Shown in pieces: positions 1,826 through 64,000 of a DNA stretch of 64,000 bases. Under the pieces are notes generated by a model. The model did no database searches. It was not told the origin of the DNA and was given only the letters and a program-made list of their open reading frames with translations. Origin of the DNA: Apteryx mantelli (taxonomy: Eukaryota > Chordata > Aves > Apterygiformes > Apterygidae); assembly GCF_036417845.1 (NCBI RefSeq), contig NC_089981.1, positions 20,046,001-20,110,000 on the forward strand, written 5' to 3'. Each line of letters begins with the position of its first letter. Positions within the stretch are counted from its first letter, which is position 1. Position numbers and translations under genes: made by a program.

Positions 1826-1857
1826 AGGTCCTGAAAAAGATAAGGACAACTTAATTT

Positions 1858-1872
1858 GGGGGGGGGGGGGGG
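1858..1872. repeat. Poly(G) run of 15
   Basis: Fifteen consecutive G directly after the 5' end of the CR1 fragment. In copy 2 the equivalent place (about 16476) has only seven G interrupted by T, so this run has changed length since duplication. It is a likely sequencing or polymerase slippage point. Confidence 0.9.
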
Positions 1873-5985: not shown

Positions 5986-5989
5986 CAGC

Positions 5990-8342: not shown

Positions 8343-8344
8343 AG
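8343..8344 (+). other. Candidate 3' splice site before OR pseudogene A1
   Basis: A long pyrimidine tract (8326-8342) ends in CAG fourteen bases before the ATG at 8359. This fits the usual OR layout of one or more non-coding 5' exons spliced to a single coding exon. Confidence 0.65.
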
Positions 8345-8358
8345 GCTGGGAAGAAAGG

Positions 8359-9799: not shown

Positions 9800-10255
9800 A
9801 GGTTGCACCAGAGGTCCAAGTCCATGCAGCTTGCCACCAGCAGCTGAGAAGGCAGCTTCCCCTGGCCACCAAGGGTTGGCAGAAGTCACTTAGCACCTTG
9901 CAGCAGGAGCTTGGGGCCTCACAGGGGCTGCAGCATGGAGAGCTAGAAAACTCAGCATGAAGGAGACCCCCAACACACTAGAAGCAAGCATCAGGGGCCA
10001 GTAATAGGGCCCATCAGCAGCCCCAGGCACCACAAGTGAAGAAGCAGGTCCGGAGTCCATCCAGGGCCTCCCATCAGGAGCAAAAGGAGACCAGGCAGGT
10101 CCAGAGAGCAGCCACAATGTATGTTCCAAGGGTCCATCTAGGAGGACAACTACCTACAGTGCAGGTCTGAGGTCCATCCAAGAGACAAGAGAGGAGCCAG
10201 TCGCGCCTACAATACATCTCAGAGAAGGGCTGAAACCCCTGGCCTGAGCTTAAAG
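9800..10255. repeat. Unclassified interspersed repeat R, copy b (duplicon 1, truncated)
   Basis: Shares cagccccaggcac, gtgcaggtctgaggtcc, ctcagagaagggctgaaacccc and the gagcttaaa core with the other R copies. It ends abruptly at 10254, where about 420 bases present in copies 2 and 3 are missing, so the right end of R is lost here. The left limit is uncertain. Confidence 0.55.
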
Positions 10256-12988: not shown

Positions 12989-13292
12989 GTGCAGATCCAC
13001 AGCATCACCATCTCCAGCTCATAAACTCACTTTTTGCCGTTTTGCACAGTGGCAATATAACTATGAGAGTGTTGGGGACAGACTAACTGGACAAGAAGCT
13101 TGTTCTTCAGACAAGAAAGATGTAGCTATGTCAGTGGGCACAATCAGTCTGAGAGATGGCTAATTAATTCTCCAGTCCTAATCTATGAGGTTTCAAACAG
13201 TTTTGGAAGCAGCAGATCTCAGAAACATGCATGAAACATTCTCTTTCAAGAGAGGAAAAACAAAGGAAAACAATATAAAATGAGAATGCCTT
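12989..13292. other. 3' flank of OR gene B1
   Basis: About 300 bases between the CR1 3' end and the OR stop codon. No gene. On the minus strand this would hold the B1 3' UTR, but I see no AATAAA close to the stop. Confidence 0.5.
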
Positions 13293-14625: not shown

Positions 14626-15900
14626 CAGCAGCTACAGTGCCTAAGCAGATCCCTCTCAAGGCTCCAGGTAATACAAGGTCCTATCACAAAGCGGAAGGGT
14701 ATCTTGGAACTTAAAGTTCTGGGGAAAGGTGGCTGTGCTTTCAGGGTGGAAACTGGCCTCTCTTTATCTCTCTACAGACTAGGCAGAGTCTTTCCTTCTG
14801 CTCTTGTTTCCTTCATTAGAAGTGAGATTCATTGGACTACCACACTATAGACAAGCTGGAGCCAAAGTGGCCCTCTGGCTTTCCTGGCAGTGTAGAGGAT
14901 TGGCTCTTCTGACCTATCATGAACTATTTCTCTTAGATTAAGAAGACTTATCCTCTGAGGGTAGCTTGACTATGGGAGAGGTTTAAATGAAATGCTCAGG
15001 CTTTGAGGCTTGCTCCGTAGATGTCGAAAAGGTGACCAAGGCCAGCTGCCTCCCTGCACACCATCGTGCACGCCAAACAACTCCCTCAGCTAGACGCTTT
15101 CACTTTTAACCTTTTGATGCAAGACCTTTTGATAAAGCTTGCCAAGGTGGGTAAATCTTAAGGTAAATCTCCCCTTAATCATTTCCTTTCCAGTTCAGGG
15201 GTTTGGTCTCTTCTGCACAGCTGATGTGAAAGTGCTCAAGCAGACATCTAAAATATCTGTTGCTACATTAGAAGTCCAGCACCAACTGTCATTAAATAAT
15301 ATAGATGGGATGAAACATATCTAACTAGAAACTTCTGTGCTCAGTCAAGTGAGACTACTCTCAGCTTAATTACAGAAGGGCATACTACTTCTCTAGTAGC
15401 AGTAGTACCCTTCAAATGCCCTTTCAGAGTACTAAGGCATGCCTTAAGCTGTCATTTTCATAGGCTTTAGGAAGGATTTTCCAATGGGTGACAAAATGCC
15501 TACATGTTCCTCCAACGCAGGGCATGATACAATGCTTGCCTTACACTTCCACTAACCTCTTCATTGCAAAGCTCTCCCCTTACCTGAGGAGGTGCTTACT
15601 AAAATAAATTGGAGTCAGGCACTTCTGCAGGGCAATTCATCCCCTCCAAAGAAAGGTCTTAGCCATTTGGGGTAAATCATCACCTGTAGCTGCTCACTTC
15701 CTGCTTTTAAAGGGAAAGTAGACACCCGTGTAGAGCTAAACTTACAAAGGTTGGATGCCCAAGAGTCAGTGAAGATTCCTCACAGGACAGAGACCTGCAC
15801 ATAGGGCAAAGGAAGGAGTGATCTAGGATATCACTGAGTGCATATAACCATTGAAACAACAGTGCTGCTGAAGAATACCTAGTGAGAACGGGTGGCCTTC
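14626..15900. other. Non-coding start of duplicon 2
   Basis: Counterpart of 1-1282. No gene seen. Confidence 0.7.
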
Positions 15901-16441
15901 ATCACAGAATCACAGACTGGTGGAGGTTGGAGGGGACCTCTGGAGATCATCTAGTCCAACGCCCCTTTTCAAGCAGGGTCACCTAGAGCACGTTGCACAG
16001 GATCGTGTATAGGCAGGTTTTGAATATCTCCAGAGAAGGAGACTCCACAACCTCTCTGGGCAACCTGTTCCAGGGCTCTGTCACCCTCACAGTGAAGAAG
16101 TTTTTTCTCACGGTCAGATGGAACTGTCTGTGTTTCAGTTTGTGCCCGTTGCCTCTTGTCCTGTCGCTGGGCACCGCTGAAAACAGTCTGGCCCCATCGT
16201 CTTGACACCCTCCCTTAAGATATTTGTATACCTTGATAAGATCCCCTCTCGGTCTTCTCTTCTCCAGGCTGAACAGGCCCAGCTCTTGCAGCCTTTTCTC
16301 CTAAGAAAGAAGCTCCAGTCCCCCCTAATGATCTTCGTAGGCCTTTGCTGGACTCTCTCCAGTAGTTCCATGTCTCTTGTACTGGGGAGCCCAGAAATGG
16401 ACACAGTACTCCAGATGTTATACCACGTGAGCCTCAAGTGA
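15901..16441 (-). mobile_element. CR1 LINE, 5'-truncated (copy 2 counterpart)
   Basis: Same insertion as 1283-1825, with the same ends. The ORF2 C-terminus can be read at 15983-16174 on the minus strand. Duplicated along with the unit rather than newly inserted. Confidence 0.93.
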
Positions 16442-19263
16442 AGGTCCTGAGAAAGATAAGGACAACTTAATTTGTGGGGGGGAGGAAACAGGAGGATGGA
16501 GCAGCCATGAGTGACAGAAAGCTACATTCTCTTTTGCACCTTCCTGCTGGGGTCCAGTATTGTCTGCACTGCCTACAGGAGCGCTGGTCATGGCCAGCTA
16601 CCTGCAGCAGAGCTGCCGGCAAAGCCCCGTTTCACCATGCATCCCGGGGCTCTTGAGCCCAGCCAACTTTCTCCTGGGTGTCAGCAACATCCTGAGGAGG
16701 CCAAGGCAGAAGCTTTTCCTGGGCAGATGTGTCATTCCTTGCCTGACACAGCTACCTGCCCAAGCAAGTGGGGAGTATGGGCTCAAACTTTCTTTCTAGC
16801 AAGTTCCTCTCCGTTTCTCCCAAGCCCATCTGGACTTGTTTCCATAATGCAGGAACAATACAGATGTGAGGCGAGCTTGGACCTGACAACAGCCTGGGAC
16901 CCACTCTTGAAACACCACCAGGACCTAGCAGAGCTGTGTCCAGGTGTGCCCTGGATGTCGGTGTGCTCTCTGCTTCCCGGTACTTTGTCCCCTGGACTCC
17001 GGGTAGCACTGGTGGGGAAGATGCTCTTCTACAGACGTGTCATCCCGTGGTGAAAAGTAAGTGTAACCAACCCAGGGATGGTTGTGTGTTTGGGTGAGGC
17101 AAGGGGGACCTGCTAGGTTTGGGGTATCCTGTCTCATCGGTCCCCCAAATCCCTTCTTGCACATTACAGTAGGCGTGCTTGTTCTCTCATTCATTTGTGC
17201 ATCTCTCCTCCTGCAGCTCCTGGTGGGATGCAGTGAAGTATACCTGAGGAGTATGTTTGCATACTATGCCTTTTGTCAGTACATACTCTGTTTTTGAGAT
17301 CCCCATGATTAAGGGAATGGTGCTCAGGGGCAGGCATTGACACCTGAACAGGCATTTCCAACAATTATGATCCAAAATCACCCCACCCACAGGACCTCAT
17401 CCTCTTAACATACATTAGTCTTCCACAGTTTTCAGCAGAACCTGAAATCTCCAACTGTCATGCCTCTTACCTGGATACAGACAAACTGTAATGATTCAGA
17501 CAAACTTTCAAAAGTGAATAGTAATGGTGAGGTATTTGGCCAGCATTCATTTTGAAAGCGTGTCACGGGCGAGGCAAGCTGACAAAGGTTCTGCCTTATT
17601 CTGGGACGTGGAAAAAATTAACTTTAGCACCTGACTTAAACACAGTGCTAAACTAAGAATCCCCCTTGGCTGTGTTGCTTGTCCACTATGACACTCTTCC
17701 TGCTTGTGAATTCTAGTGAGCAGCATAGGTCTAGTAAGGTTAATCCAACACCATGTGTAGAAGCATTATTCCATGTGCCCTGCCATTTCCCACCTCTTCT
17801 TTTGCATCTTTGCTGCATTCTTTATCAGTAGTTTCTTACCAAGATCCTTAATTTTCCTACCTCACATTGGCGCTCCTGCAGTTCTTCACAGTTCTCCTCC
17901 GTCCCAGTGAAACTACAGGCAGGTAGGATCATCAGCCAGGTGCTGACGGAGGATTTTGTCCAGGCACAAAGTTATCCAGTTCTTCTCAGAGACATATGAG
18001 GACAGTCAACACATCACCATCCAGCATCTCTTTGTCTCGGAAATTCACTCACGTTTGCTCCGTTCAGTGGTCTCCCCGAGCTACTGGCAGACCCCCACTC
18101 AGTGAGGACTGAGCGGAAGTCCAAATATAGGCTCTGTCGGTCTCTGTGAAACCAGAATGATGTCCCACTCATCCCATACTCATGGGATAAGTTATCAGAG
18201 GTTCTCCAGGGCACCTGGTAAACAGAGCGAGCTTCCCCTGAGGACCTGGGCTTGCATCATGCAGAGATTTCTCTCTGCAGCTAATGTTTTGGCAAATCCC
18301 CCAAACATATCAGAAATAATGCCTGCAGACGATAAGTCATTATACTGATGCACTTAACTTTGCAGGGAAGAACTAAACACGAGACAATGCATTTCTGTGG
18401 AAGGATGTAAATCAGAAGAACAACTTCTTCCTGTGTTTCTGGAGAAACACATACAAGTAACTTCTTACTGCTGGCTCAATTGAAGGAAATCTGTTCGTCT
18501 CTGTCATGGCCAGTCACGTTAAATTTACTTTTATTTGTGTAATATTTTTGCTTGAATTGAACATGCATCTGTTAAAGAAAAAGCATAGCAAAATACAGAA
18601 ATCAATCTGCTACCATTCTCCCTTCTCCAGTTTGAAGACAACTTGCAGTTTCATATTGCCCTTTCTCATACGATTGTGCTGAGGGTTTTCCTCAGGTGAG
18701 GTGCCATATCAGCTTCTTTACTCAGTCTTTTCAAGGACTCAGGCTAGCTTTGGACACCTCTGCAGGACATATCACTCATCAGAAGCACCTGTTTCTCACT
18801 GTACAGGATTAAGGACACCTGGACAACAAGGCCAGACCTACAGAAACAACTTTTGAACACCTGCAGTTAGGCAGGTGAATCCCAACCAGGACACTCTTTT
18901 ACCAAGTCTCTGAGCTCACATTCTTTGAGTTTACATTTGTTGTTACTAAGTCTTTCCTTCTGGGATTTACCTCCAACTCTGGAAGTAACACCTACCTCTG
19001 GGCTAGTTTACCTGAGGTTCCCTCTGCTCACAAGAAAAGGTGTCCAACCTAAAACATGCCATGTGCCACCATTAAGACATGTTCAGGAGCTGCTCTGCTG
19101 CACTCATGCCACTAGAGAGCAGTGGTGGTATTTTAAGGATGCTTGGAAAAACCCAGGATGTCTCATTCAACATGTTGCCTAGTTTAGCATTACTGTCTCC
19201 ACATCACACACTATCCAGGGAGGCCTGCGCAAAGGTCCTGGCTCTTCGGCCCCTTCGTAGGTG
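16442..19263. other. Non-coding duplicon body, copy 2
   Basis: No gene recognised. A 180-codon frame at 16511-17053 is broken in copy 1 and has no known domain. Bases 17587-17855 have no counterpart in copy 1. The 696-base segment with the TTCC repeat is absent near 19033. Confidence 0.6.
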
Positions 19264-20081
19264 ATCACTGAATCAGACTAATCATGGACTCAGGTGGGAA
19301 GGGACCTCAGGAGGCCTCTAGTCCAACCTCCTCCTTAATGCAGGTTCAACACTGAACTCACATCACATTGCGCAGGGCCTTCTCCAGTCAAGGCTTGAAA
19401 AATCTCCAAGGATGGAGGCTGCACAGCCTTGCTGGACCCTCTTCCAGTGCCCAACTGTCCTCTGGGGTGAAAAACGGTCTTCTATCCAGTCAAACCTCCC
19501 CATTTTCGTTTATGACCACTGTCCCTCATCTCTCTGCTGTGTGCCTCAGCAGAGCCTGGCTTTGGCTTCTTGATAACCTGCGTGTAGGCACTGTGAGGCT
19601 GCTCTTAGGTCCTCCCAAGGCCTTCTGGTCTCCAGGCTAGTGTAAGTACTTTTCCCTCAGCTTCTTCTCACAAGTGGGGTGCCTCAGACCCCAACTGTCT
19701 TGGTGTCCCTGCTAGACTTGCTCGGGTTTGTTGACACCGTTCTTGCTGTGGGAGGCCAAACCTGGAGGGGGTACCCAAACATGGCCTAAGAAGTGCCAAG
19801 TAAAGGGGGATAAGCACAGCCCTCCACATCCTGGCTGTGCTCCTGTGCACGTGGCCCAGGATGCTCTAGGCTCCACTCGCTGCCAGGGCACACTGCTGGC
19901 TCAGGCTTGCCTGCCAGGACTGCAGGTCTCCCAGCAGAGATGCTCTCCAGCACACACCAGTCTGTCACAGGCACAGCACTTATCATTTGTCCCCGCTGAA
20001 GTTCATGAGGTTCCCGGTGGCCCATTCCCCCAGCCTGCCCAGGTCCCTCTGCACAGCCACCCTGCCCACAAGCATATCAAC
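19264..20081 (-). mobile_element. CR1 LINE, diverged (copy 2 counterpart)
   Basis: Same insertion as 5091-5985, about 100 bases shorter at the end next to repeat R. Confidence 0.85.
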
Positions 20082-20412
20082 AAGACAAAGCTTCAGGAAG
20101 CAGCGAGGGCCAGCTGGGACCTCAGCACAGGCAGGACCCTCCCCATGGGGACACAGACCCACAGGCACAGACCCAGCAGGCAGAGCCTGGGGCTGGCAAC
20201 AGGCTCCCTTGACAGCCCCAGGCACGGCAAGCAAGAAGCCAGGTCTGAGGTCCACCCAGAAGGCAGAGACCAGGCTGGAGACAAGCACACCTACAACATA
20301 GCTCAGGAAGAGACTGAAGGCCCTGGGCTGAGCTTAAATAGGGCTCCTGGGCCATGGACAGGGTGGTGTGAGTGGGGCTCCAGGTGAGGCTCCTCAGGGC
20401 TATTATGCCCCC
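20082..20412. repeat. Unclassified interspersed repeat R, copy a (duplicon 2)
   Basis: Counterpart of 5990-6360. A 37-base segment between two caggtctg repeats is missing compared with copy 1. The TATA-like core reads agcttaaata (20331-20340) followed by gggctcctgggcc. Confidence 0.6.
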
Positions 20413-20691
20413 TTGCTGCCCTCAGGGCACTAAAATGCACAGTGAATGCCATCCCAGGAGGGATAGAGAAGGCATTAAACAGAAACATTTTGACCAGTTC
20501 AGAAAGCAATGTTTTTTTCAGACGTGGAAATATACCATCTTGGCGCATACACTTGGACCTTTTCATCTGCATTATGAAAAGGCACCTTTCATTTAAAGAT
20601 TGATCTTTATTTTAACTGGCTTAAGTAAATTGCAAACGAATAAACTTCATGCTGCGTCCAATAGAAATGCACTTTTCAGTGTTTCGTCTTG

Positions 20692-20733
<42 letters not shown>

Positions 20734-22019
20734 CATATAAAGAGAGGCAAATGTATATGTGTACAAAAGGAAAGGAACCAAGCCCCCTAGCATTCTTCCC
20801 ACTACCCTGAGGATAACCTAAGGCAGAACAGACACTGCAATCAAAACTGAGGTCGCTGGGACACTTGCAAAGCAGAGGTATTGGTCCAGCATCACAGAGT
20901 CCACCATTCCCCAGCAATGTGCTCCTCTATCACACAGAAATGAAAACAAGGTGATAATCATGTCCCCAAGCACAGTAAGCTTAACTGGAAGCATTTATTT
21001 ATTTATTTTTCAAGATGCATAGTGCCAGGATAACTCTCTTCTCCCAGGGAGAGGATTTGGGACAAAAGAGGTTCCTCGTGGTCAGAGGACAGTGGGGCAA
21101 GCAGACCAAAAGGACTTTGGGTTTCCATGAGAAATTGCGCCAGTGAAAAGCTGAAGCTCAGGGTAGCTCTGCAGCTGCTTGGCCTAGCACAGATTTTCTA
21201 CACTGTAAGTTGAGACTGATTGCAAACTCACAAGGAACAACATGAATAACCGCGAGCCTTGAGTTGGGACTGCCATCTTCCCCGCTCTCGCCTGGAAAGA
21301 GCACAGTGATGGACACCAAAGGCTCCAGTCCTGAAAGCTTTTCTCTGTAGGAGTGCAAAGATACCGATGTGGAACAAGCAAACTAGGTGGCTGGGGGAGT
21401 CGAGCCGCGCTGGGTGAGGGAGGGCTTGAACACACCTTTAGCGCCCATCACAGCAGTCTTGCAGGGCAAACGCCTTCTACCAGCCCGTGTCTCCACTCCA
21501 GGTAGATTTCACACCTTCTTGGAGTCCACAGATCTCTCAGGCTCTCCAGAGACCTTGGAAAGGCTTCCTCTTTTCCTGGAGCTTCAAGTCTGCTTCCCTG
21601 CCACCCCCCAGCCAGCTCCCCCTGAGCCAGCTGTCTCCCCAGTCCCTCCCAGAGCCAGCAGCCCCCCTTCCTTCCTCCAGAGCCTCTCCCCGGGCAGGCG
21701 GGCACCTCTCTCCCCAATATATGACCTTTTTCTAAACATCATTTATTGGTTCTGGACACCATCTGACAAGGAGACATTTTGACCACCCAGCACAGCATAG
21801 CTGATTTGAACTCTGCAGTAAGAAAGGAAGTGGCAAGCAACTAATGCCTGAATGGAGCTGGATTAGCTCCTGAAAAGAAGGATTTGCTAGAGCTGCTCAC
21901 AGGCATTGCCCAAAAGCAATCGCCAGCCCCATGAGATCATCTCCTAGGACTACCAGGGCATGGCTACTGAGCTATCTAACTAACACTAGCCCCTCTGCTG
22001 GCTTTTTCTTTCTTCACTC
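20413..22019. other. Non-coding region upstream of OR pseudogene A2
   Basis: Counterpart of 6361-8342, lacking the 300 bases 7172-7471. No gene recognised. Confidence 0.6.
20695..20734. repeat. (AC)n(AT)n microsatellite
   Basis: Longer AC tract than the copy-1 counterpart at 6649-6682. Confidence 0.9.
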
Positions 22020-22021
22020 AG
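22020..22021 (+). other. Candidate 3' splice site before OR pseudogene A2
   Basis: Pyrimidine tract followed by CAG, fourteen bases before the ATG at 22036, unchanged from A1. Confidence 0.6.
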
Positions 22022-22035
22022 GCTGGGAAGAAGGG

Positions 22036-22681
22036 ATGGTAGAAAACTGCACAGAAGCAATAGAGTTCATTCTTGAGGGTTTTTCAGACTGCCTGCAACT
22101 GCGGATTCCCCTTCTCTTGGTTTTCCTGGTGAGCTACGTCATCACATTAGTGGGGAATCTCAGGATGATCTTTCTAATTGGGGTTGACCCTCAACTTCAC
22201 ACCCCCATGTACTTCTTCCTCAGTCACCTGTCCCTTGTAGACCTCTGCTGCTCCTCTGTGGTCACCCCCCAGGTGCTGGCCAATTTCTTTGCTCAGCAGA
22301 AAGCCATTTCACTTCTGCAGTGAGCCACACACATGTGGTTCTTCAGCCTCTTTGTGCCTACCGAGTGTCACCTCCTGGCAGCAATGGCCTAGGACCGCTA
22401 CGTGGCCAATACGTGGCCATTTCCAAACCTCTGCTCTACGCTGTCATCATGTCCCCCAAAATCCGTTCCCAGCTGATAGTTGGCCCTTACACAGTGGGGA
22501 TCGTGAATGCCGTGACACACAGCAGCCTTGCTTCCAGCTACGCTTCTGCAAGCCCAGTGTGATCAATCACTTCTTCTGCGATATCCCCACAGTGATCCCC
22601 TGCTCCTCCTCACACACACGCACCAACAAGCTGGTGCTTTTCACCCTGTCCTTCGTACTTATGTACTGGCCTTTGTACTGG
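22036..22681 (+). pseudogene. Olfactory receptor pseudogene A2 (class II)
   Basis: Sister of A1. The first 95 codons are open (NCT at 4-6, GNLRM in TM1, HTPMYFF in TM2). It then meets the same TGA (22321-22323) and the same TAG in place of the first Tyr of MAYDRY. It has its own 11-base tandem duplication in the DRYVA region (tacgtggcca twice), its own 12-base duplication around tgtactgg at the 3' end, and lacks the one-base loss of A1. Homology ends in TM5, with no TM6 or TM7. The changes shared with A1 date the loss of function before the duplication, and the private ones came after it. Confidence 0.93.
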
Positions 22682-23524
22682 AGAAACCCACATCCCCCAC
22701 AGACTCCCCTGGAACAGTCAAAGCCCCTAGGATAGATGAGGCCTTTAGCAGCTATGTACAAAGACAAACGCAAAATTATTTCATACACGGTAAGGCAGAA
22801 AAGGGGGAGCACAGCCAGAGCTAGACACGAGCCTCTCCTCAACCAACCCAGGCTCCCACGATATCTAAAGGACTTCTCAAGTTTTTATTTGATTTTCTAT
22901 GGAGTGAAAAACAGGCAAAGATGAAGCATCTGATTAGTAAAAGCCAACAAATGCATATGAACTGTACGTGTAGTGAGAACACTTCTCTAAGGAGACCAAA
23001 TGAGAGGCCTTGTCCACCAGCAGGCAGAGGGAAGAGTTGAAGCTTGACCCACTGGAAGCCCCTCGGCTGGCCTGAACTCCAAGCTCTCATCACCTAGGCT
23101 AGGCTAAGTTAAATCTATTTCTGCCACAAATGACACTGCTCTGCTTCCCAAAACAAGAAGCTCACTCTGGGGGCCAGCCAGCCAGCCTTCCAGGAGTCAT
23201 CAGCTTAACAAGCCCTTCTGGGCATTAGGAAGAAAGTCCCTAATGACCCTGAAACCTTCTTAGAGAGCTCACACTCACCTTACCTCATTCTTCCTAACAA
23301 GCCACTGCGGGACAACCTCAGAGAGACTATCAAGAAGGAAACTTTCTTCTTTGTTAATGGCAACGAGCACTTCTAAAGCTGTTTGGTTTGTCACAACTAC
23401 CTCGGCCCTGAAGCCTGTGGTTAGGGAGCTTACAGGTCAGTACATTGGCCTATGCCTCCCCAGTCCTCCACTCCATTGGTACGGAGGTTACCACCAGAGG
23501 TTGAAGAAAAGCAAGCCCATGCAG
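22682..23524. other. Non-coding region 3' of A2
   Basis: Counterpart of 8981-9799. No gene seen. Confidence 0.6.
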
Positions 23525-24090
23525 CTTGCCACCAGCAGCTGAGAAGGCAGCTTCCCCTGGCCACCAAGGGTTGGCAGAAGTCACTTAGCACCTTGCAGCA
23601 GGAGCTTGGGGCCTCACAGGGGCTGCAGCATGGAGAGCTAGAAAACTCAGCATGAAGGAGACCCCCAACACACTAGAAGCAAGCATCAGGGGCCAGTAAT
23701 AGGGCCCATCAGCAGCCCCAGGCACCACAAGTGAAGAAGCAGGTCCGGAGTCCATCCAGGGCCTCCCATCAGGAGCAAAAGGAGACTAGCCAGGTCCAGA
23801 GACCAGCCACAATGTATGTTCCAAGAGTCCATCTAGGAGGGAAGCCACCTGCAGTGCAGGTCTGAGGTCAATCCAAAAGACAGGGGAGGAGCCAGTCACG
23901 CCTACAAAACATCTCAGAGAAGGACTGAAACCCCTGGGCTGAGTTTAAATGAAGTCCTAGGCTATGGGCTGGGTGGAGGTCCAGGTGAGGCTCTTCAGGG
24001 CCATCAAGGCCTATTATTGCTTTCAGGACCCTGACTCAAACAGTGCTACTAGCCCAGCTCATGGATGCTAACTGTGCTGGTGGTTCTTAG
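23525..24090. repeat. Unclassified interspersed repeat R, copy b (duplicon 2, fuller)
   Basis: Includes the right half lost in duplicon 1, with gggctgagtttaaatgaagt then ggtccaggtgaggct and cagggccatcaaggcc, which align with 6290-6360 and 41270-41350. Boundaries are approximate. Confidence 0.55.
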
Positions 24091-25780
24091 CTGCTTTCTG
24101 CTGCTTGAGGGACTGAAGTCTGTGAGGTGGCCTCCTCCACGGCCAGCTCTATCAGTAAAAGCAGGCCTTGATGTGCAGCAATGCTAGGCTTTTCCCGCCT
24201 GCGATTCTTGCCCCTCCCTCTTCAATGCATGTCAAACCATAGTCCTCTCCAACACAGGGCTGACTGCTGGTGCAGCCTTGCATCTCTCTGAGATGTGCAG
24301 CTGCTTAACCACACTTCAAATGGATGTGGTATTAAATTGGTTAACATGTTAAAAAACGCTGAATGATATGAAAGCACTACTAGTCCAAGTGAATTCAGCT
24401 ATTCATGCAGGCCCACATCTTGGCAGCCTTCAGGGAGTCGCTAACCTCCCACCTCAGACTCAAAGGGGACATTAGCACCTGGTTTCTCTTAGAGAACTTC
24501 ATGGCATTGCAGCGTCTGCCTGAGTCAGCAGAGATTACGTAGTCCCTTCAAGTTGGGTCATAAGGCCCTACCCAGATGTCAAGGTAGCACGTGTCCAGCT
24601 GAGGCACACGCTTGGTGCACGGGCAGCGCTGCCTGGGACAGGCGACATTCCCCTGTCCACAAGGGCAGGGGCTGCCAGCGATGCCTCTGTTGGCCTCGGC
24701 ATGGATGCAGGTGAGCCCTCAAGCTCTGCCGGGGTAATGGGGACCAGTTCCCCCAGCAGCTGCATGCAGAGGGCCCGCCTGCATTCAGGACACCCAGGTT
24801 GGCACCTGAGTCCAGAGTGATGCCTGCACCACCACAGCCAAGGGACGGAGAAGGAAAAGGGAAGCACTGCGAGCCTTGCAGGGTGACAAACAACCATCCC
24901 CTCGGTTTCTCTGCTTGACAATTTTAAAAAGCCTTGATTTCCTTGGTGGTGATATTTCCAGCTCTGTGTTCTGTAGCAGGGGTGTATGGCGCATGCTCCA
25001 GGACCACTCCGCAATGTGATCCAGAGCTAACCAGCGTGGGCATGGGGAAAGTCAAGAAACACAGAGCACAAGGCAGGGACCTGCACCCCAAGGGGCTCTC
25101 AAAGAAGCCACACACAAGAAGGTGCTGGGCAGGAAGATGGCAAGTGAAAGTCAGCATACCTATAGAGAAAGCAGGGCACCGGAGGAAATAAAGAAATCAT
25201 TAACTTCAGCTCAGAACCCCCAGTTTTGTACTCAGCCACGGTTTCATATTCCGTGCTGAGCGCGGGAAATGGAAAAAGTGCCTCTGGCCCTCAGTATAAT
25301 CTAGAGAAAAAAACTTACTTTAAGGGAAGACTCAGAATATGAATTTGAACAACTCATTTAACGTGTTCTTTATACATACAGAAGAGTATAGTCTGTCCAA
25401 GGATATGAAGTTATACATTTAATATGCTGGAGGGTAGTGGTGGCCAACAAATCAGGTAGCACAACACTTCATGATTCAGCCTCAAACTATTCAGATATAG
25501 AAATGTAACATAAGCTTGTTCATCATTCATTCAAGTTTACATTTTCTCCCAGCTTTTAAGATAGTCTTCATTGAACACTGTACATTCAAACTCCCGTTCA
25601 CTCAGCATAGGCATTCTGGAAACGTGGTGAGACCGCTTGACAAAAATGGAAAATAGAAACAAATAGTTTTGGCTAACAGGAAAAAGAGATGGTGCGAAGC
25701 AGCTGAAAAAGCTTTGAGGGGAATTTCAACGCTCCTATACTTTAAGAGGGCCTGTGAGAAGACATTTCACCCATAAAGCC
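24091..25780. other. Non-coding region between R and CR1, copy 2
   Basis: Counterpart of 10256-11663 plus the approximately 420 bases missing there. No gene recognised. Confidence 0.6.
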
Positions 25781-26274
25781 TGGAGTGCTGTGTCCAGGTC
25801 TGGGCTCCCCAGTACAAGGGAGACATGGAGCTCCTGGAGTGAGTCCAGCAAAGGGCTGTGAAGGTGATTAAGGGACTGGAGCATCTTTGCTGTGAGGAGA
25901 GGCTGAGAGAGCTGGGACTGTTCAGCTTTGAGAAGAGAAAGCTCAAGGGGGATCTTATCAATGTATAGAAATACCTGATGGGGGGAGGTAGGGAAGATGG
26001 AGCCAGACTCTTCTCGGTGGTGCGCAGTGAAAAGACAAAATGAAATACAGGCAATGCTATTTAAACATAAGAAAAAAGTTTTGATGGTGAGGGTGGTCAA
26101 ACACTGGAACAGGGTGCCCAGAGAGGTTGTGGAGTCTGCATCCTTGCAGCTATTCAAAGCCCGACTGCACACAGTCCTGAGCAACCCACTGTAGCTGATC
26201 CTGCTCTAAGCAGAGGACTTGGACTAGACAGCTGCAGAGGTCCCTTCCAACCTTAACCCTTCTGTGATTTTGTG
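25781..26274 (+). mobile_element. CR1 LINE, 3' half only (copy 2 counterpart)
   Basis: Begins at tggagtgctgtgtccaggtc, equal to 12496 on in copy 1, after the deletion junction shared with copy 3. It runs to the CR1 3' end ttctgtgatttt. Confidence 0.92.
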
Positions 26275-26580
26275 TGCAGATCCACAGCATCACCATCTCC
26301 AGCTCATAAACTTACCTTTTGCCCTTCTTGCACAGTGGCAATATAACTGTGACAGTGTGGGGGACAGAGTAACTGGAGAAGAAGCTTGTTCTTCAGACAA
26401 GAAAGATGTAGCTGTGTCAGTGGGCACAATCAGTCTGAGAGCTGGCTAATTAATGTTCTGGTCCTAATCTATGAGGTTTCAAACAGTTTTGGAAGCAGCA
26501 GATCTCAGAAACCTGTGTGAAACATTCTCTTTCAAGAGAGAGAAAAAAAAAAAGAAAACACTATGAAATGAGAATGCCTT
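26275..26580. other. 3' flank of OR remnant B2
   Basis: Counterpart of 12989-13292. No gene seen. Confidence 0.5.
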
Positions 26581-26845
26581 TCAGAAGTACATTTTCCTCC
26601 TGATAATATTGATTGTGGCATGCTTCACCTCCTTGTTCCTCAGACTGTAAATCAAGGGGTTCAGCATGGGGATTATAATGTTATAAAAGATGGATGCAAA
26701 TTTCCTGCTCTCCATTGAGTTCATTGAACTGGGTTGCATGTAATTGAAAGCAGCAGATACGTAGAAGATGGTGCCGGCTGCTAGGTGGGAGGCACAGGTG
26801 GAGCAGGCTTTGCGCCTGCCTTCAGCAGAGCGCATCCTCACGATG
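26581..26845 (-). pseudogene. Olfactory receptor remnant B2 (last 87 codons)
   Basis: Only about residues 225-311 of a B-type receptor remain, starting [14 protein letters not shown] and running through [10 protein letters not shown] and [12 protein letters not shown] to the same RRK-x-YF end and stop as B1. Everything upstream (TM1 to TM5, start codon, splice site) is cut off at the duplicon edge and replaced by unrelated DNA. The frame stays open for 21 codons beyond the break by chance, ending in a Met at 26907. It cannot encode a receptor. The surviving part is almost identical to B1, so the truncation is recent relative to the duplication. Confidence 0.95.
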
Positions 26846-51860: not shown

Positions 51861-53452
51861 GAAAAGCTTCAGAGGGCTATAAAGAGGGCACATCCGTGAA
51901 GAGCACAAGGCATGCCGCCAGCTAGCTTGCCAGATGTGGGTCTGGGAAGCATAGCCCGTTGTTTTCCAAACAACTCAGCTGCTGGACGAAACAGCTCATT
52001 CATGGCCAGCCTAAGACTGAGGGAATTCTGTCTGAACTCTACAGCTGTAATAAAAAACATATCAGGCCCCAGCTGTTGCCAGAGGAATACAATGTTTGGA
52101 TGTTTTACATGTGAATGAAAGACTAGGAAAATAGTTCTCATTGTAAAATCTCATTTTTCCGAAAAGACTAATAGTGGAAATATGCTTGGGGGGAAAAAAG
52201 AGTAAAATACAAACAATGCTGTTACAGGCATCTGTGATGTGGTATTTGTTTCTATTTTTCTGCCTTTGTATTTGTCCAGGAAAACTGGCTCAATTTAGAC
52301 ACCTATTTTAAGATGAGGCTAAACAATTAGTTTTTAGACTCCAAGACTTCAGTAAGCTGAATTACAGTCTTTACAGATGCAAGTATGCCTGTAATCTCCC
52401 AGGTAGGCAAACACTTTCCCCCTCCCCCCCACACACCCAAATGATTTTTTTTTAAACAACATTCCTAAAAACAGAGGTCATTCCAGATATACAAATTTGT
52501 AATTACAACTTTCATGGTGCACATTCTATTTTAATGTTTGTCCACACAAAACAAAGCAAAAGCCTTAATAGGCAGTATTCGTACTGATGTGGTTTCCTCT
52601 GCAAGCTAGTTGAAAGAATCCCAGCATCGAGTAAAGTGGTTTTTGTTGTCTTTTTTTGGTTTTTTTTGTATGTTTGTTTTTTTTAGCGAAACTGGTGCTT
52701 CCTGGCCCTGCCTAAGGAAGAGCACAGCACTGAATAAGCAGCTGTTAGAAAGATGTTTTGAGTGAGGCTGGTGCATCCTGACCCTGCCTGGAGGTTGAGG
52801 TGCAGAAATTGCAATCGTTCATTAGTATCCTACGTGCCAGAAGTGAGCAGTCCTAAACACCATCCCGCACAGGAAAGGACCTAACCAAGAAATAATCCCG
52901 ACCCTAGCTCCTACGGCTGTATCAGACATTGACAGCCTGAGCCCAGGTGCCCGCCCTGCGGAGACAGGTCTGGGCTGTCCTACTACTGCCCCGGCTGTGG
53001 CTCTTGCCTTTCTCGCTGTGGCGTGAAAAGAAGAAACCCCAGAGCATGATTCTGGCATTCAGTGATGCATCTTCAGCTGCTCTCCATCTCTTATGCCCCG
53101 TAACGTATAAAACAGATACAAGGACAACTCCAGGTTGTCTGGGTTTCCGGCTCAGATGGCTGCCCCTGCTACCATATGCCACGTTTGAAGGTAGCCACGT
53201 GAAAGATTGGGGTTTGACACCTGGCACAGGCCCTTGCTGGGCTGTGACCTGTTGGCATTTCCGTAAACGAGCCTTTCTTTGCATCCTCGGCAGAGGCATG
53301 CGGTGCTGGCAGGCATTCCTACCGCTCAGCACCACCCTGTCTGTCCCAGTCCGAGACTGTCCAGATGCCCAGCAGGAGCGTTAGTTAGCCTCAGCTTATG
53401 TCAGCTGAGGGAGCCCAGAAGAATTAAATTTGGACCAGGTGGCCTATGTACT

Positions 53453-54299
53453 GGAGAAACCCACATGTCCCACAGACTCCCCCGGAAGAGTCGAAGCCCC
53501 TAGGATAGATGAGGCCTTTAGCAGCTATGTACAAAGACAAACGCAAAATTATTTCATACACGGTAAGGCAGAAAAGGGGGAGCACAGCCAGAGCTAGACA
53601 CGAGCCTCACCTCAACCAGCCCAGGCTCCCACAATATCTAAAGGACTTCTCAAGTTTTTATTTCATTTTCTATGGAGTGAAAAACAGGCAAAGATGAAGC
53701 ATCTGATTAGCAAATGCCAACAAATGCATATGAACTGCACGTGTAGTGAGAACCAGAGATGCCTTATTCTTTAAGGAGACCAAATGAGAGGCCTTGTCTA
53801 GCAGCAGGCAGAGGGAAGAGTTGAAGCTTGACCCACTGGAAGCCTCTCGGCTGGCCTGAACTCCAAGCTCTCATCACCTAGGCTACGCTACCCTAAATCT
53901 ATTTCTGACACAAATGACACTGCTCTGCTTCCCAAAACAAGAAGCTCACTCTGGGGGCCAGCCAGCCAGCCTTCCAGGAGTCATCAGCTTAACAAGCCCT
54001 TCTGGGCATTAGGAAGAAAGTCCCTAATGACCCTGAAACCTTCTTGGAGAGCTCACACTCACCTTACCTCATTCTTCCTAACAAGCCACTGCGGGACAAC
54101 CTCAGAGAGACTATCAAGAAGGAAACTTTCTTCTTTGTTAATGGCAACGAGCACTTCTAAAGCTGTTTGGTTTGTCACAACTACCTCGGCCCTGAAGCCT
54201 GTGGTTAGGGAGCTTACAGGTCAGTACGTTGGCATATGCCTCGCCAGTCCTCCACTCCTTTGGTACGGAGGTTACCACCAGAGGTCCAAGTCCATGCAG
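53453..54299. other. Non-coding part of duplicon 3
   Basis: Counterpart of 8981-9799 and 22682-23524. Only about a dozen bases of pseudogene A remain in front of it. No gene. Confidence 0.6.
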
Positions 54300-54860
54300 C
54301 TTGCCACCAGCAGCTGAGAAGGCAGCTTCCCCTGGCCACCAAGGGTTGGCAGAAGTCACCTAGCACCTTGCAGCAGGTGCTTGGGGCCTCACAGGGGCTG
54401 CAGCATGGAGAGCTAGAAAACTCAGCATGAAGGAGACCCCCAACACACTAGAAGCAAGCATCAGGGGCCAGTAATAGGGCCCATCAGCAGCCCCAGGCAC
54501 CACAAGTGAAGAAGCAGGTGCGGAGTCCATCCAGGGCCTCCCATCAGGAGCAAAAGGAGACCAGGCAGGTCCAGAGACCAGCCACAATGTACGTTCCAAG
54601 GGTCCATCTAGGAGGGAAGCTACCTGCAGTGCAGGTCTGAGGCCAATCCAAGAGACAAGGCAGGAGCCAGTCATGCCTACCAAACATCTCAGAGAAGGGC
54701 TCAAACCCCTGGGCTGAGCTTAAATGAGGTCCTAGGCTATGGGCTGGGTGGAGGTCCAGGTGAGGCTCTTCAGGGCCATCAAGGCCTATTATTGCTTTCA
54801 GGGCCCTGACTCAAACAGTGCTACTACCCCAGCTCATGGATGCTAACTGCGCTGGTGGTT
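54300..54860. repeat. Unclassified interspersed repeat R, copy b (duplicon 3)
   Basis: Counterpart of 23525-24090, with core gggctgagcttaaatgaggt then cctaggctatgggctgggtg. Full length relative to the truncated duplicon-1 copy. Confidence 0.55.
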
Positions 54861-56552
54861 CTTAGCTGCTTTCTGCTGCTTGAGGGACTGAAGTCTGTGA
54901 GGTGGCCTCCTCCACGGCCAGCTCTATCAGCAAAAGCAGGCCTTGATGTGCAGCAATGCCAGGCTTTTCCCGCCTGCGATTCCTGCCCCTCCCTCTTCAA
55001 TGCATGTCAAACCATAGTCCTCTCCAACACAGGGCTGACTGCTGGTGCAGCCTTGCATCTCTCTGAGATGTGCAGCTGCTTAACCACACTTCAAATGGAT
55101 GTGGTATTAAATTGGTTAACATGTTAAAAAACGCTGAATGATATGAAAGCACTGCTAGTCCAAGTGAATTCAGCTATTCATGCAGGCCCACATCTTGGCA
55201 GGCTTCAGGGAGTCACTAACCTCCCACCTCAGACTCAAAGGGGACATTAGCACCTGGTTTCTCTTAGAGAACTTCATGGCATTGCAGCGTCTGCCTGAGT
55301 CAGCAGAGATTACGTAGTCCCTTCAAGTTGGGTCATCAGGCCCTACCCAGATGTCAAGGTAGCACGTGTCCAGCTGAGGCACACGCTTGGTGCACGGGCA
55401 GCGCTGCCTGGGGCAGGTGACATTCCCCTGTCCGTGAGGCAGGGGCTGCCAGCGATGCCTCTGTCGGCCTCGGCAAGGATGCAGGTGAGCCCTCAAGCTC
55501 TGCCGGGGTAATGGGGACCAGTTCCCCCAGCAGCTGCATGCGGAGGGCCCGCCAGCATTCAGGACACCCAGGTTGGCACCTGAGTCCAGAGTGATGCCTG
55601 CACCACCACAGCCAAGGGACGGAGAAGGAAAAGGGAAGCACTGCGAGCCTTGCAGGGTGAAACAACCATCCCCTCAGTCTCTCTGCTGGACAATTTTAAA
55701 AAGCCTTGATTTCCTTGGTGGTGATATTTCCAGCTCTGTGTTCTGTAGCAGGGGTGTATGGCGCATGCTCCAGGACCACTCCGCAATGTGATCCAGAGCT
55801 AACCAGCGTGGGCATGGGGAAAGTCAAGAAACACAGAGCACAAGGCAGGGACCTGCACCCCAAGGGGCTCTCAAAGAAGCCACGCACAAGAAGGTGCTGG
55901 GCAGGAAGATGGCAAGTGAAAGTCAGCATACCTATAGAGAAAGTGGGGCGCAGGAGGAAATAAAGAACGTCATTAACTTCAGCTCAGAACCCCCAGTTTT
56001 GTACTCAGCCATGGTTTCATATTCCGTGCTGAGCGCAGGAAATGGAAAAAGTGCCTCTGGCCCTCAGTATAATCTAGAGAAAAAAACTTACTTTAAGGGA
56101 AGACTCAGAATATGAATTTGAACAACTCATTTAACGTGTTCTTTATACATACAGAAGAGCATAGTCAGTCCAAGGATATGAAGTTATACATTTAATATGC
56201 TGGAGGGTAGTGGTGGTCAACAAATCAGGTAGCACAACACTTCATGATTCAGCCTCAAACTATTCAGATATAGAAATGTAACATAAGCTTGTTCATCATT
56301 CATTGAAGTTTACATTATATCACAGCTTTTAAATAGTCTTCATTGAGCACTGTACATTCAAACTCCCGTTCACTCAGCATAGGCATTCTGGAAACATGGT
56401 GAGACTGCTTGACAAAAATGGAAAATAGAAACAAATAGTTTTGGCTAACAGAAAAAAGAGATGGTGCAAAGCAGATGAAAAAGCTTTGGGGGGAATTTCA
56501 ACATTCCTATACTTTAAGAGGGTCTGTGAGAAGACATTTCACCCATAAAGCC
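54861..56552. other. Non-coding region between R and CR1, copy 3
   Basis: Counterpart of 24091-25780. No gene recognised. Confidence 0.6.
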
Positions 56553-57048
56553 TGGAGTGCTGTGTCCAGGTCTGGGCTCCCCAGTACAAGGGAGACATGG
56601 AGCTCCTGGAGTGAGTCCAGCAAAGGGCTGTGAAGGTGATTAAGGGACTGGAGCATCTTTGCTGTGAGGAGAGGCTGAGAGAGCTGGGACTGTTCAGCTT
56701 TGAGAAGAGAAAGCTCAAGGCGGATCTTATCAATGTATAGAAATACCTGATGCAGGGGGAGGTAGGGAAGATGGAGCCAGACTCTTCTCGGTGGTGCGCA
56801 GTGAAAAGACAAAATGAAATACAGGCAATGCTATTTAAACATAACAAAAAGGTTTTGATGGTGAGGGTGGTCACACACTGGAACAGGGTGCCCAGAGAGG
56901 TTGTGGAGTCTGCATCCTTGCAGCTATTCAAAGCCCAACTGCACACAGTCCTGAGCAACCCACTGTAGCTGATCCTGCTCTAAGCAGAGGGCTTGGACTA
57001 GACAGCTGCAGAGGTCCCTTCCAACCTTAACCCTTCTGTGATTTTGTG
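56553..57048 (+). mobile_element. CR1 LINE, 3' half only (copy 3 counterpart)
   Basis: Same insertion as 12000-12988 with the same deletion junction as 25781-26274. Confidence 0.92.
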
Positions 57049-57351
57049 TGCAGATCCACAGCATCACCATCTCCAGCTCATAAACTCACTTTTTGCCGTT
57101 TTGCACAGTGGCAATATATCTATGAGAGTGTGGGGGACAGACTAACTGGAGAAGAAGCTTGTTCTTCAGACAAGAAAGATGTAGCTGTGTCAGTGGGCAC
57201 AATCAGTCTGAGAGCTGGCTAATTAATTCTCCAGTCCTAATCTATGAGGTTTCAAACAGTTTTGGAAGCAGCAGATCTCAGAAACATGCATGAAACATTC
57301 TCTTTCAAGAGAGGAAAAACAAAGGAAAACAATATAAAATGAGAATGCCTT
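57049..57351. other. 3' flank of OR B3
   Basis: Counterpart of 12989-13292. No gene. Confidence 0.5.
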
Positions 57352-58291
57352 TCAGAAGTACACTTTCCTCCTGATAATATTGATTGTGGCATGCTTCACC
57401 TCCTTGTTCCTCAGACTGTAAATCAAGGGATTCAGCATGGGGATTATAATGCTATAAAAGATGGATGAAATTTTCTTGCTCTCCATTGAGTTCATGGAAC
57501 TGGGTTGCATGTAATTGAAAGCAGCAGATACAAAGAAGATGGTGACGGCTGCTAGGTGGGAGGCACAGGTGGAGCAGGCTTTGCGCCTGCCTTCAGCAGA
57601 GCGCATCCTCACGATGGTCACTGCAATGTGGGTATAAGAGGCGATGATGAGCAGGTTGGTGGTGATCACGTTGAAGCCCACAAACACAAACATCACAACC
57701 TCGTTGAGCCACGTGTCAGTGGAGGAGAGAACAAGCAATGGGGGCACATCACAGTAGAAGTTATTGATGACGTGAGGGCCACAGAAGGAGAGCTGGATCA
57801 AGCCACTCGTGTGTGCAACAGCATTCAGCAGCCCCGCGAGGTAGCACCCAGCAACCAGGCACGTGCAGAGTCCAGGAGACATGACGACCCCGTAGAGCAG
57901 GGAGCTACAGATGGCCACGTAGCGGTCATACGCCATGGCAGCCAGAAGGTAAACTTCAGACGTTACAAAAAAAGCATAGAAGTAAAACTGCATGAGGCAG
58001 CCAGCAAAAGAAATGGCTTTGTGTTTTTCTGAAAGGTCCAACAGCATTTTGGGGCTGATTGATAGTGCAGGAATAGCAAATGTCTAAGAAGGACAAGTTA
58101 CTGAGGAAAAAGTACATGGGGGTGTGGAGCTGGGGGCTGACCCTGACCAGCACGATGATGCCGAGGTTTCCCACTAGGGTCAGCATGTAGGTGCGCAGGA
58201 AGAGGGCAAAGAGGACGGGCTTCAAGTGTGGGTGCTCTGTGAGTCCTGCGAGGGTGAAGTGGGTCACCCTGGTGCAGTTCTCATCCACCAT
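57352..58291 (-). pseudogene. Olfactory receptor B3, single frameshift
   Basis: Very close to B1 over its whole length. The only disabling change I see is a four-base gain near 58055-58065: copies 1 and 4 read gctgatggtgcagg, this one reads gctgattgatagtgcagg, as if TGAT had been doubled. It falls at about residue 77 (CTI before SPK in TM2), so the first frame ends early and the remaining 231 codons are open in another frame (57352-58047). All motifs are otherwise kept: NCT near the start, [32 protein letters not shown]. The loop-2 LSSTDT variant of B1 is present. The upstream region beyond 58328 differs from B1 and B4. A fresh pseudogene, or possibly a broken allele or a sequencing error. 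Confidence 0.93.
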
Positions 58292-62621: not shown

Positions 62622-63557
62622 TCATGGGCACATTGTCCTCCTCAGAAGTCTCCTCAGAGCAGCCTTCACCTCCTTGTTTCTCAGGCTGTAAATCAGAGGA
62701 TTTGACAAAGGTATCACTACCGTAGAGAAAACTGAAGGCCACTTATCTTCATCAACTGCTGAACTAGAGCTGGGCCGTAGGTACATGAGGAAAAAACTCA
62801 CATAGAGAATCAGGACAGCCGCTAGGTGGGAGGCACAGGTGGAGCAGGCTTTGCGCCTGCCTTCAGCAGAGCGCATCCTCACGATGGTCACCGCAATACG
62901 GGTGTAGGAGGTGATGATGAGCAGGTTGGTGGTGGTCAGGTTGAAGCCCACAAACACAAAAACCACAACCTCGTTGAGCCATGTGTCAGTGGAGGAGAGA
63001 ACAAACAATGGGGGCGCATCACAGTAGAAGTTATTGATGATGTGAGGACCACAGAAGGAGAGCTGGAGCAAGGTGCTCGTGTGTATGACGGCATTCAGCA
63101 TCCCTGCAAGGTAGGACCCGGCAACCAGGCACGTGCAGAGTCCAGGAGACATGACAACCCCGTAGAGCAGGGGGCTGCAGATGGCCACGTAGCGGTCATA
63201 CGCCATGGCAGCCAGAAGGTAGATCTCAGACGTGGCAAAAACAGCATAAAAGTAAAACTGCATGAGGCAGCCAGCAAAAGAAATGGCTTTGTGTTTTTCT
63301 GAAAGGTCCAACAGCATTTTGGGGCTGATGGTGCAGGAATAGCAAATGTCTAAGAAGGACAAGTTACTGAGGAAAAAGTACATGGGGGTGTGGAGTTGGG
63401 GGCTGACCCTGACCAGCACGATGATGCCGAGGTTTCCCACTAGGGTCAGCGTGTAGGTGCCCAGGAAGAGGGCGAAGAGGACAGGCTTCAGGCGTGGGTG
63501 CTCTGTGAGTCCTGCAAGGGTGAAGTGGGTCACCCTGGTGCAGTTCTCATCCGCCAT
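62622..63557 (-). CDS. Olfactory receptor B4, intact mosaic (class II)
   Basis: A 311-residue odorant receptor with an open frame and full motif set: NCT at 5-7, GNLGI at 41-45, HTPMYFFL, Cys97, [10 protein letters not shown] at 118-127, Cys169 and Cys179, [10 protein letters not shown] at 236-245, NPLIYSLRN at 286-294. Residues 1 to about 246 are nearly identical to B1 and B3. From there on (YVSFFLMYLRPSSSSAVDED to the end, RRLLRRTMCP) the sequence and the 3' flank are unlike them. The join at about 62820 coincides with the edge of the duplicon and keeps the frame, so this looks like a fusion of two ORs by unequal recombination. TM7 reads [12 protein letters not shown] where [12 protein letters not shown] is usual. 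The frame is open 34 codons upstream, but that is the presumed intron. Confidence 0.95.
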   Translation of the reverse strand: MADENCTRVTHFTLAGLTEHPRLKPVLFALFLGTYTLTLVGNLGIIVLVRVSPQLHTPMYFFLSNLSFLDICYSCTISPKMLLDLSEKHKAISFAGCLMQFYFYAVFATSEIYLLAAMAYDRYVAICSPLLYGVVMSPGLCTCLVAGSYLAGMLNAVIHTSTLLQLSFCGPHIINNFYCDAPPLFVLSSTDTWLNEVVVFVFVGFNLTTTNLLIITSYTRIAVTIVRMRSAEGRRKACSTCASHLAAVLILYVSFFLMYLRPSSSSAVDEDKWPSVFSTVVIPLSNPLIYSLRNKEVKAALRRLLRRTMCP

Positions 63558-63953
63558 CTGTACTGTCCTTAGTCGCTGCAGAGAGACATGGAAGGAAGAG
63601 GGTGAAAACAATGCTGGATGCAATTTCCACTTCAAAATATCAATGTGAAAAGATGACACTGCCTTTGAGGTTAAATGGAAAAGGAAAAAAGTAAAAGAAC
63701 TGCTGATTATTCTCTTGCAGTGACAGTAACCTCTTTGGAAGAAGAAAACGCAGCAGTTCTTAGAAATTCTTTTCCATAAGCATCCAACAAAGAAAGCAGG
63801 GTGTCACAACCTGTTCTGTGACCCCTGATTCCCTTCCAGGCACAAATCCAGTATCTACATGCAGATTCTGGGGGGCTCATGAGATGTTTCATAAATATAA
63901 TGATGACAGCTGCGGACCATGCACCCTTCTTCATGTTTTCCTGTATTTTGATG
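63558..63953. other. Region 5' of OR B4
   Basis: Counterpart of 14229-14625, presumed intron. No gene seen. Confidence 0.55.
63576..63589 (-). other. Altered 3' splice site region before OR B4
   Basis: The CCAG found before B1 and B3 reads CCAT here (A at 63588 on the plus strand where B1 has C). The nearby CTGCAG (AG at 63576-63577) is kept and leaves an 18-base leader, the same spacing as at the other OR genes. Confidence 0.5.
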
Positions 63954-64000
63954 CAGCAGCTACAGTGCCTAAGCAGATCCCTCTCAAGGCTCCAGTTAAA

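What the first reader, a model, noticed from the sequence alone, without database searches (positions are those of the whole stretch)
62622..63557. In-frame chimeric olfactory receptor (B4) made at a duplicon edge
The first ~246 codons match B1 and B3 almost exactly. The last ~65 codons and the 3' flank belong to a different OR lineage. The switch at about 62820 is in the conserved [10 protein letters not shown] stretch and is also where duplicon homology stops, so unequal recombination between paralogous OR exons is the simplest cause. It yields an intact receptor with a new TM6 end, third extracellular loop, TM7 and tail.
Basis: partly seen in the sequence, partly recalled or inferred. Interest (0 to 1): 0.75.

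Follow-up and report, generated by a model that had tools for sequence, protein, structure and literature searches.

The report
Smell-receptor array with two swapped tails
A smell-receptor gene that looked like a one-off hybrid is one of six near-identical intact copies in a 300-kilobase gene array in which paralogous receptors share a front part but carry one of two very different tails, an ordinary kind of recombination in this gene family seen here unusually clearly.

Summary
B4 (62622-63557, minus) is an intact 311-aa receptor. Its first 737 nt are 95% identical to B1, the last 199 nt only 57%, with the switch at 62820/62821. In the whole genome B4 is not a lone chimera made at this duplicon edge: six intact genes carry its tail (X), and eleven genes plus a stub carry the B1 tail (Y), all in one ~300 kb array. 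Among the scored candidates neither tail sits on another 5' half, so no donor was found. Flanks sort 16 of the 17 genes into X, U2Y (B3 type) and U1Y (B1 type). X and U2Y share only ~780 bp of exon. All seven U1Y genes have the X-type upstream flank and the U2Y-type downstream flank and sit between two copies of a ~14-kb unit. The simplest reading: B1 is the crossover hybrid and B4 a parental or edge gene. Both tails are OR5-like. Tail Y groups with two local receptors whose 5' halves are unlike B, so Y is the likelier altered class; X is unresolved. Mosaic and fused receptors are known: a clear new example, not a new kind.

The parts
62622..63557 (-). B4, intact olfactory receptor gene of class X (U1 upstream, X tail), 311 aa
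62821..63557 (-). 5' part shared with B1/B3 (codons 1-246), 95.1% to B1, 93.4% to B3
62622..62820 (-). X tail (end of TM6, third extracellular loop, TM7, C-terminus by recalled receptor topology); 40-44% nt different from tail Y; six copies found in the genome
58334..62621 (.). spacer between B3 (U2Y) and B4 (X); its B4-side end is left of all six X genes, its B3-side end right of all three U2Y genes
63558..64000 (.). U1 upstream flank, shared with B1; runs into the start of another S unit (63954-64000 = 1-47 = 14626-14671)
13293..14228 (-). B1, intact OR of class U1Y: X-type upstream flank, Y tail and Y downstream flank; junction gene between two S units
57352..58291 (-). B3, frameshifted OR of class U2Y
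26584..26845 (-). B2, stub holding only codons 225-311 with tail Y
1..13292 (.). S unit I (between an X gene whose start codon is about 0.4 kb left of the window, and B1)
14626..26583 (.). S unit II (between B1 and B2)
53440..57351 (.). right end of an S unit, left of B3

Best explanation
B4 is a regular member of a recombining OR5-like array, not a private chimera. SHOWN: two tail classes, X and Y, 42.7% different in nt on average, are attached to one 5' part that differs by 3.9-8.4% between classes; X genes and U2Y genes (B3 type) share only ~780-790 bp of exon (5' UTR to codon 246); each of the seven U1Y genes (B1 type) has X-type sequence upstream and U2Y-type sequence downstream. INFERRED: two old neighbouring paralogues were made alike over the first ~250 codons by gene conversion, which stopped where conserved motif gives way to variable sequence at codon 246. 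Crossovers between a U2Y gene and an X gene (~5.25 kb apart, same strand, or one ~14-kb unit apart) then made U1Y hybrids such as B1 and multiplied the S unit. B4 is a parent or edge gene of that process. FUNCTION, inferred: the two classes would share most of the receptor body and differ in the end of TM6, third extracellular loop and TM7, so they probably differ in odorant response. Because the crossover lies in an uninterrupted coding frame and in register, products stay intact.
For: Six X genes, 6 of 6 intact, and 11 Y genes, 9 of 11 intact, plus the B2 stub, within C4:19.808-20.110 Mb (the DNA searches of the genome scored only the best 40 candidates each, so counts are lower bounds). Upstream 900 nt (658 for Y_20039): U1 in 6 of 6 X and 7 of 11 Y genes, U2 in 3 of 11 Y, other in 1 of 11 (5'-truncated); no U2X gene. 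S and spacer mapping: 6 of 6 X genes have spacer left and S right; 7 of 7 U1Y have S on both sides; 3 of 3 U2Y have S left and spacer right, ATG to ATG 5244-5266 bp from an X gene. B3-B4 homology is one 790-bp block at 92.8%, apart from a 39-bp piece of the tail and a 171-bp dispersed repeat. B1 paints as XXXXX222X222 at 12 fixed X/U2Y differences; one switch explains 11 of 12, permutation p 0.013. Tail Y groups with o19369 and o19304, 96/96 starred; in the 5' tree B groups with o19254 and o19260 (94/92), and B held with o19369+o19304 has p-AU 0.042.
Against: The other six U1Y genes do not paint as one clean switch (for example 2XXXX222X2XX), so a single simple crossover does not explain them. 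When neighbouring sites are merged into events, B1's switch between B4-like and B3-like sequence is not significant (p 0.10), and in nt 1-162 B1 is slightly nearer B3 than B4 (2.5% against 3.1%). In the 25-row tail tree no alternative placement of X or Y is rejected (p 0.13-0.37). The 5' rejection is borderline (0.042; in the smaller set, with o19369 alone, 0.064), and o19369 was fetched because it was the best outside hit to tail Y. In nt 1-737 the X genes form one clade (90/92; in nt 491-737 alone they do not, p-AU 0.435 for holding them together), which fits one old joining event as well. A U1Y-first history with separate changes at the two edges is not excluded. S between C4:20.012 and 20.039 Mb was read only at its ends.
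Confidence: 0.6

Rival explanations
1. One reading: the B5'-Ytail gene is ancestral, and a single old crossover at codon 246 with an unknown OR gave the first X gene, which was later amplified to six. B4 would be a descendant of a chimera, not a new one.
For: The tail change is abrupt and single. X genes form one clade in nt 1-737 (90/92). Within-class tail divergence in X (up to 5.5%) is similar to 5' divergence between classes (3.9-8.4%).
Against: No donor for tail X among the scored candidates above 64% aa over most of the tail. It needs a second, separate event to give the U2 flank, with both events falling exactly on the edge genes. Tail Y, not X, has relatives with an unlike 5' half.
Confidence: 0.25
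2. Both tail classes are discordant with the 5' part: a B 5' half spread by repeated gene conversion over two unrelated OR5-like genes.
For: In the 23-row set, holding X or Y tails with the 5' relatives o19254+o19260 was rejected (p 0.032 and 0.028).
Against: With six more receptors and four rows left out the same tests no longer reject (p 0.264 and 0.256). Sixty-one tail columns carry little signal.
Confidence: 0.12
3. Assembly artefact: the B4 mosaic is a misjoin of repeat copies.
For: The region is highly repetitive, with several copies 99.8-100% identical, a setting in which misjoins happen.
Against: Six copies with the same junction, in two tail subtypes 5.5% apart, all six with intact frames, and three with a U2Y gene at nearly the same distance.
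Confidence: 0.03

Closest known systems
Human OR8U1 chimera of OR8U8 and OR8U9 (PMC2570968, passages read)
   Same: Two intact OR genes recombine inside the coding exon, in a 119-bp identical stretch, to give a chimeric OR
   Different: There a deletion allele segregating in people; here an array with 6 + 11 genes in one assembly and tails ~43% different in nt
Human OR51A2-OR51A4 fusion (PMC2978733 and PMC2570968, passages read)
   Same: Crossover inside OR coding regions, with deletion and duplication alleles at the locus
   Different: Fusion near the 5' end that leaves the protein of one parent; here the switch is at codon 246 and changes TM6-TM7
Mosaic ORs by gene conversion in OR clusters (review PMC1995454, passages read, citing Sharon 1999, which I did not read)
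   Same: Conversion and recombination make mosaic receptor sequences and homogenise paralogues
   Different: Here the shared part stops at one repeated point, leaving two persistent tail classes
Avian gamma-c OR expansion (PMC2758906 and PMC6969042, passages read)
   Same: Species-specific amplification with suspected gene conversion
   Different: B genes are OR5-like by best match and were not tested as gamma-c members

Membership tests
Class II (OR5-like) olfactory receptor | Pfam 7tm_4 over its cut-off across most of the protein | tested here: met
   146.7 bits against a cut-off of 27, residues 34-305
Class II (OR5-like) olfactory receptor | Consensus OR5 is the best solved relative of the whole protein, the 5' part and the tail separately | tested here: met
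   394.3, 311.2 and 66.2 bits
Class II (OR5-like) olfactory receptor | Uninterrupted coding frame of ~310 codons with PMYFF-, [10 protein letters not shown], SY- and [13 protein letters not shown] motifs (motif list recalled) | tested here: met
Class II (OR5-like) olfactory receptor | Expression in olfactory epithelium and odorant response | not testable with these tools
   no RNA or assay data
Chimeric/mosaic OR gene made by NAHR or gene conversion | Abrupt identity change inside the exon | tested here: met
   702/737 against 113/199, 0 of 500 shuffles
Chimeric/mosaic OR gene made by NAHR or gene conversion | Both parental genes identified, for B4 | tested here: not met
   among scored candidates tail X occurs only in the six X genes
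Chimeric/mosaic OR gene made by NAHR or gene conversion | Both parental gene types identified, for B1 (U1Y) | tested here: met
   X-type upstream and U2Y-type downstream flanks
Chimeric/mosaic OR gene made by NAHR or gene conversion | Direction shown by an outgroup | tested here: inconclusive

The most novel reading that the evidence does not exclude
A modular receptor array: conversion keeps one shared receptor body nearly uniform over 16 full-length genes, while selection keeps two alternative TM6-TM7 cassettes apart, so that new intact receptors arise by cassette combination rather than by slow divergence of duplicates.
Probability: 0.2. Interest if true: 0.6.

Novelty: new member of a known kind. 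Interest (0 to 1): 0.4.

Why it matters
Within one array it shows both conversion-like homogenisation confined to part of an exon and crossover-type hybrids, in genes that mostly stay intact. It is a natural set for asking how a TM6-TM7 swap changes odorant response, with six and nine intact receptors on the two sides. It also warns that a chimera call from one window can have the direction wrong: the apparent parent (B1) is the better candidate for the hybrid.

Tried and rejected
Family-level origin of the tail: rejected; both tails score best with consensus OR5 (66.2 bits for X; 71.3 for Y, its best single stretch 65.4). Comparing tail identity with references to find the odd tail: X is closer to consensus OR5 (37/61) than Y (32/61), but the difference is not significant (sign p 0.38).

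B1 as a single-switch hybrid from the three window genes alone: p 0.0005 by sites, 0.10 by merged events, so not used alone. Viral contigs: 6 pattern matches, none a relative. Structure prediction of B4 and B1 from four-row alignments: mean pLDDT 44.2 and 40.7, useless; no fold search was made. In one search, B held with o19369 alone in the 5' tree gave p-AU 0.001, but that test also breaks the o19369-o19304 pair, so I use the 0.042 instead.

A literature search for 'chimeric olfactory receptor gene' found 0 papers. Other searches were made; passages of PMC10463633 were read and not used.

Full report
OBSERVATION. B4 lies at 62622-63557 on the minus strand and encodes an intact 311-aa receptor. 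Pfam 7tm_4 matches at 146.7 bits, and the best solved relative is the consensus OR5 receptor. Against B1, nt 1-737 match 702/737 and nt 738-936 match 113/199. The best change point is after nt 737, and 0 of 500 shuffles reach the gain. The 3' flank of 300 nt is no more alike than shuffled sequence, and the upstream 440 nt are 96.8% alike. Synonymous divergence from B1 is 0.08 in the 5' part and 1.3 in the tail, so the tail is not a fast-evolving copy of the same tail.

FIRST CLUES AGAINST A PRIVATE CHIMERA. Window positions 63954-64000, 1-47 and 14626-14671 are the same or nearly the same sequence, so B4, B1 and something left of the window all open onto the same repeat unit. In the window alone, B1 resembles B4 in nt 163-490 (3.4% different, against 7.0% to B3) and B3 in nt 491-738 (2.8%, against 8.1% to B4); in nt 1-162 it is about equally near both (3.1% and 2.5%). 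A permutation over all break points gives p 0.0005, but merging neighbouring sites into events gives p 0.10.

WHOLE GENOME. The window is C4:20046001-20110000 of a 1.504-Gb genome. The 936-nt B4 query finds six full-length genes (B4 itself, two at 98%, three at 96%), eleven genes matching only up to nt 740-744 (one of them from nt 128), and the B2 stub; all lie between C4:19.808 and 20.110 Mb. That search scored 40 of 1442 candidates, so counts are lower bounds. The B4 tail plus 300 nt of flank is 100% identical in three genes, B4 included, and present in three more as two pieces (94% and 100%) with about 190 extra nt between them; other listed matches are at most 83% over stretches of 75-143 nt (40 of 436 candidates scored). 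The B1 tail plus flank occurs in 12 places; the best outside match is 76% over 119 nt, the rest short pieces, mostly of 51-65 nt around one conserved stretch, at up to 92% (40 of 50 candidates scored). As protein, the X tail outside the six matches at most 63% in the 150 scored candidates. 6 of 6 X genes and 9 of 11 Y genes are intact. Over nt 1-737 the differences are X-X 0-5.0%, Y-Y 0.1-6.2% and X-Y 3.9-8.4%; over nt 738-936 they are X-X 0-5.5%, Y-Y 0-7.5% and X-Y 40.2-44.2% (without the 5'-truncated Y_19925).

ARCHITECTURE. By upstream sequence (900 nt; 658 nt for Y_20039), U1 is carried by 6 of 6 X genes and 7 of 11 Y genes, U2 by 3 of 11 Y genes, and the truncated gene has neither. Downstream sequence splits strictly into X and Y. 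Mapping unit S and the B3-B4 spacer gives spacer-X-S in 6 of 6, S-U1Y-S in 7 of 7 and S-U2Y-spacer in 3 of 3. U2Y and X start codons are 5244, 5261 and 5266 bp apart. In the window, X (B4) and U2Y (B3) share one block of 790 bp at 92.8% with unrelated sequence on both sides, besides a 39-bp piece of the tail and a 171-bp dispersed repeat. A patch with both flanks unlike is what gene conversion leaves. A gene with one flank from each class (U1Y, thus B1) is what a crossover leaves. C4:20008005-20012420 reads as an X gene with S on its right, 20022441-20026180 as U1Y with S on both sides, and 20038800-20041000 as U2Y with S and spacer: the order expected from an unequal crossover between X and U2Y, although S between them was read only at its ends.

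DIRECTION. At 12 fixed X/U2Y differences, B1 reads XXXXX222X222; one switch explains 11 of 12, p 0.013. The other six U1Y genes read 2XXXX222X2XX (four genes), 2XXXXX22X2XX and 2XXXXX22XXXX, which needs later conversion or a different history. With outside receptors of the same contig, the B 5' part groups with o19254 and o19260 (94/92), while tail Y groups with o19369 and o19304 (96/96, starred), which are each other's sisters in the 5' tree (100/99). B held with o19369+o19304 in the 5' tree has p-AU 0.042; with o19369 alone in the smaller set it was 0.064. Tail X is unresolved: none of four tested placements of X alone is rejected in the larger set (p 0.26-0.33), although in the smaller set X, and likewise Y, with o19254+o19260 was rejected (p 0.032 and 0.028). 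X and Y tails as one clade are not rejected either (p 0.37). o19369 was chosen because it was the best outside hit to tail Y; o19304 came from the X-tail listing, so it is the fairer witness. I therefore lean to Y genes as the altered class and B4 as the older form, without claiming proof.

HOW IT MAY WORK. The coding frame is uninterrupted, so crossover or conversion in register keeps the frame; the intact frames fit this. The swapped part covers the end of TM6, third extracellular loop, TM7 and C-terminus (topology recalled). From the same conserved tyrosine on, B4 reads YVSFFLMYL and B1 reads YVSAAFNYM, at positions that by recalled GPCR numbering (6.48-6.56) border the ligand pocket. Different odorant tuning is thus an inference, not a result. 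Structure predictions were too poor to add anything.

KNOWN CONTEXT. Human OR8U1, a chimera of OR8U8 and OR8U9, and the OR51A2-OR51A4 fusion are described (PMC2570968 and PMC2978733, passages), and a review names gene conversion and recombination as makers of mosaic receptors (PMC1995454, passages). The kind is known. What is distinctive here is the repeated, two-tailed layout. The listings of seven searches did not show such a layout, but subscription journals are mostly not held and I read no paper whole.

Noticed in passing
G000 C4:1.3-15.6 Mb: Dozens of OR pseudogene fragments of the same shape (open frame about 165 aa, mostly with one TGA, 53-58% to the X tail) are scattered over about 14 Mb of the same contig; the call scored only 150 candidates, so their number is a lower bound.
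   Followed up: no
window 37246-38202 and 47466-48407: Both other intact ORs of the window have close copies at C4:19939247 (98.4% aa) and 19949893 (95.8% aa), so the middle of the window is also duplicated.
   Followed up: partly
window 8365-8977 and 22042-22672: Both S units of the window carry a truncated, frameshifted OR pseudogene related to the 37246 gene, on the plus strand; similar ones lie in other S copies.
   Followed up: partly
C4:19808-19822, 19853-19882 and 19912 kb; 20010 kb: X_19853, X_19912 and X_20010 differ by at most 0.2% in coding sequence, and four Y genes by at most 0.5%; blocks about 59 kb apart look very recently duplicated or converted.
   Followed up: partly
window 11664-12495; 23961-24376; 54736-55151: Unit I has about 832 bp absent from units II and III, while II and III share about 416 bp absent from I.
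   Followed up: no
window 26845 and 62818: B2 ends at codon 225 and the B4 duplicon starts at codon 246, so the two block edges overlap by 69 bp of the same exon (98.6% identical).
   Followed up: no
B1, B3 and B4 codons 106-112, 146-164 and 199-222: Copy-specific substitutions occur in tight clusters, by recalled topology in the putative ligand-binding helices, which may reflect small conversion tracts or selection.
   Followed up: no
G000 C1:0.39-1.67 Mb: 112 of the 138 scored 7tm_4 matches sit in one 1.3-Mb stretch of C1, most with far higher scores than the one C4 gene listed; possibly class I receptors (not tested).
   Followed up: no
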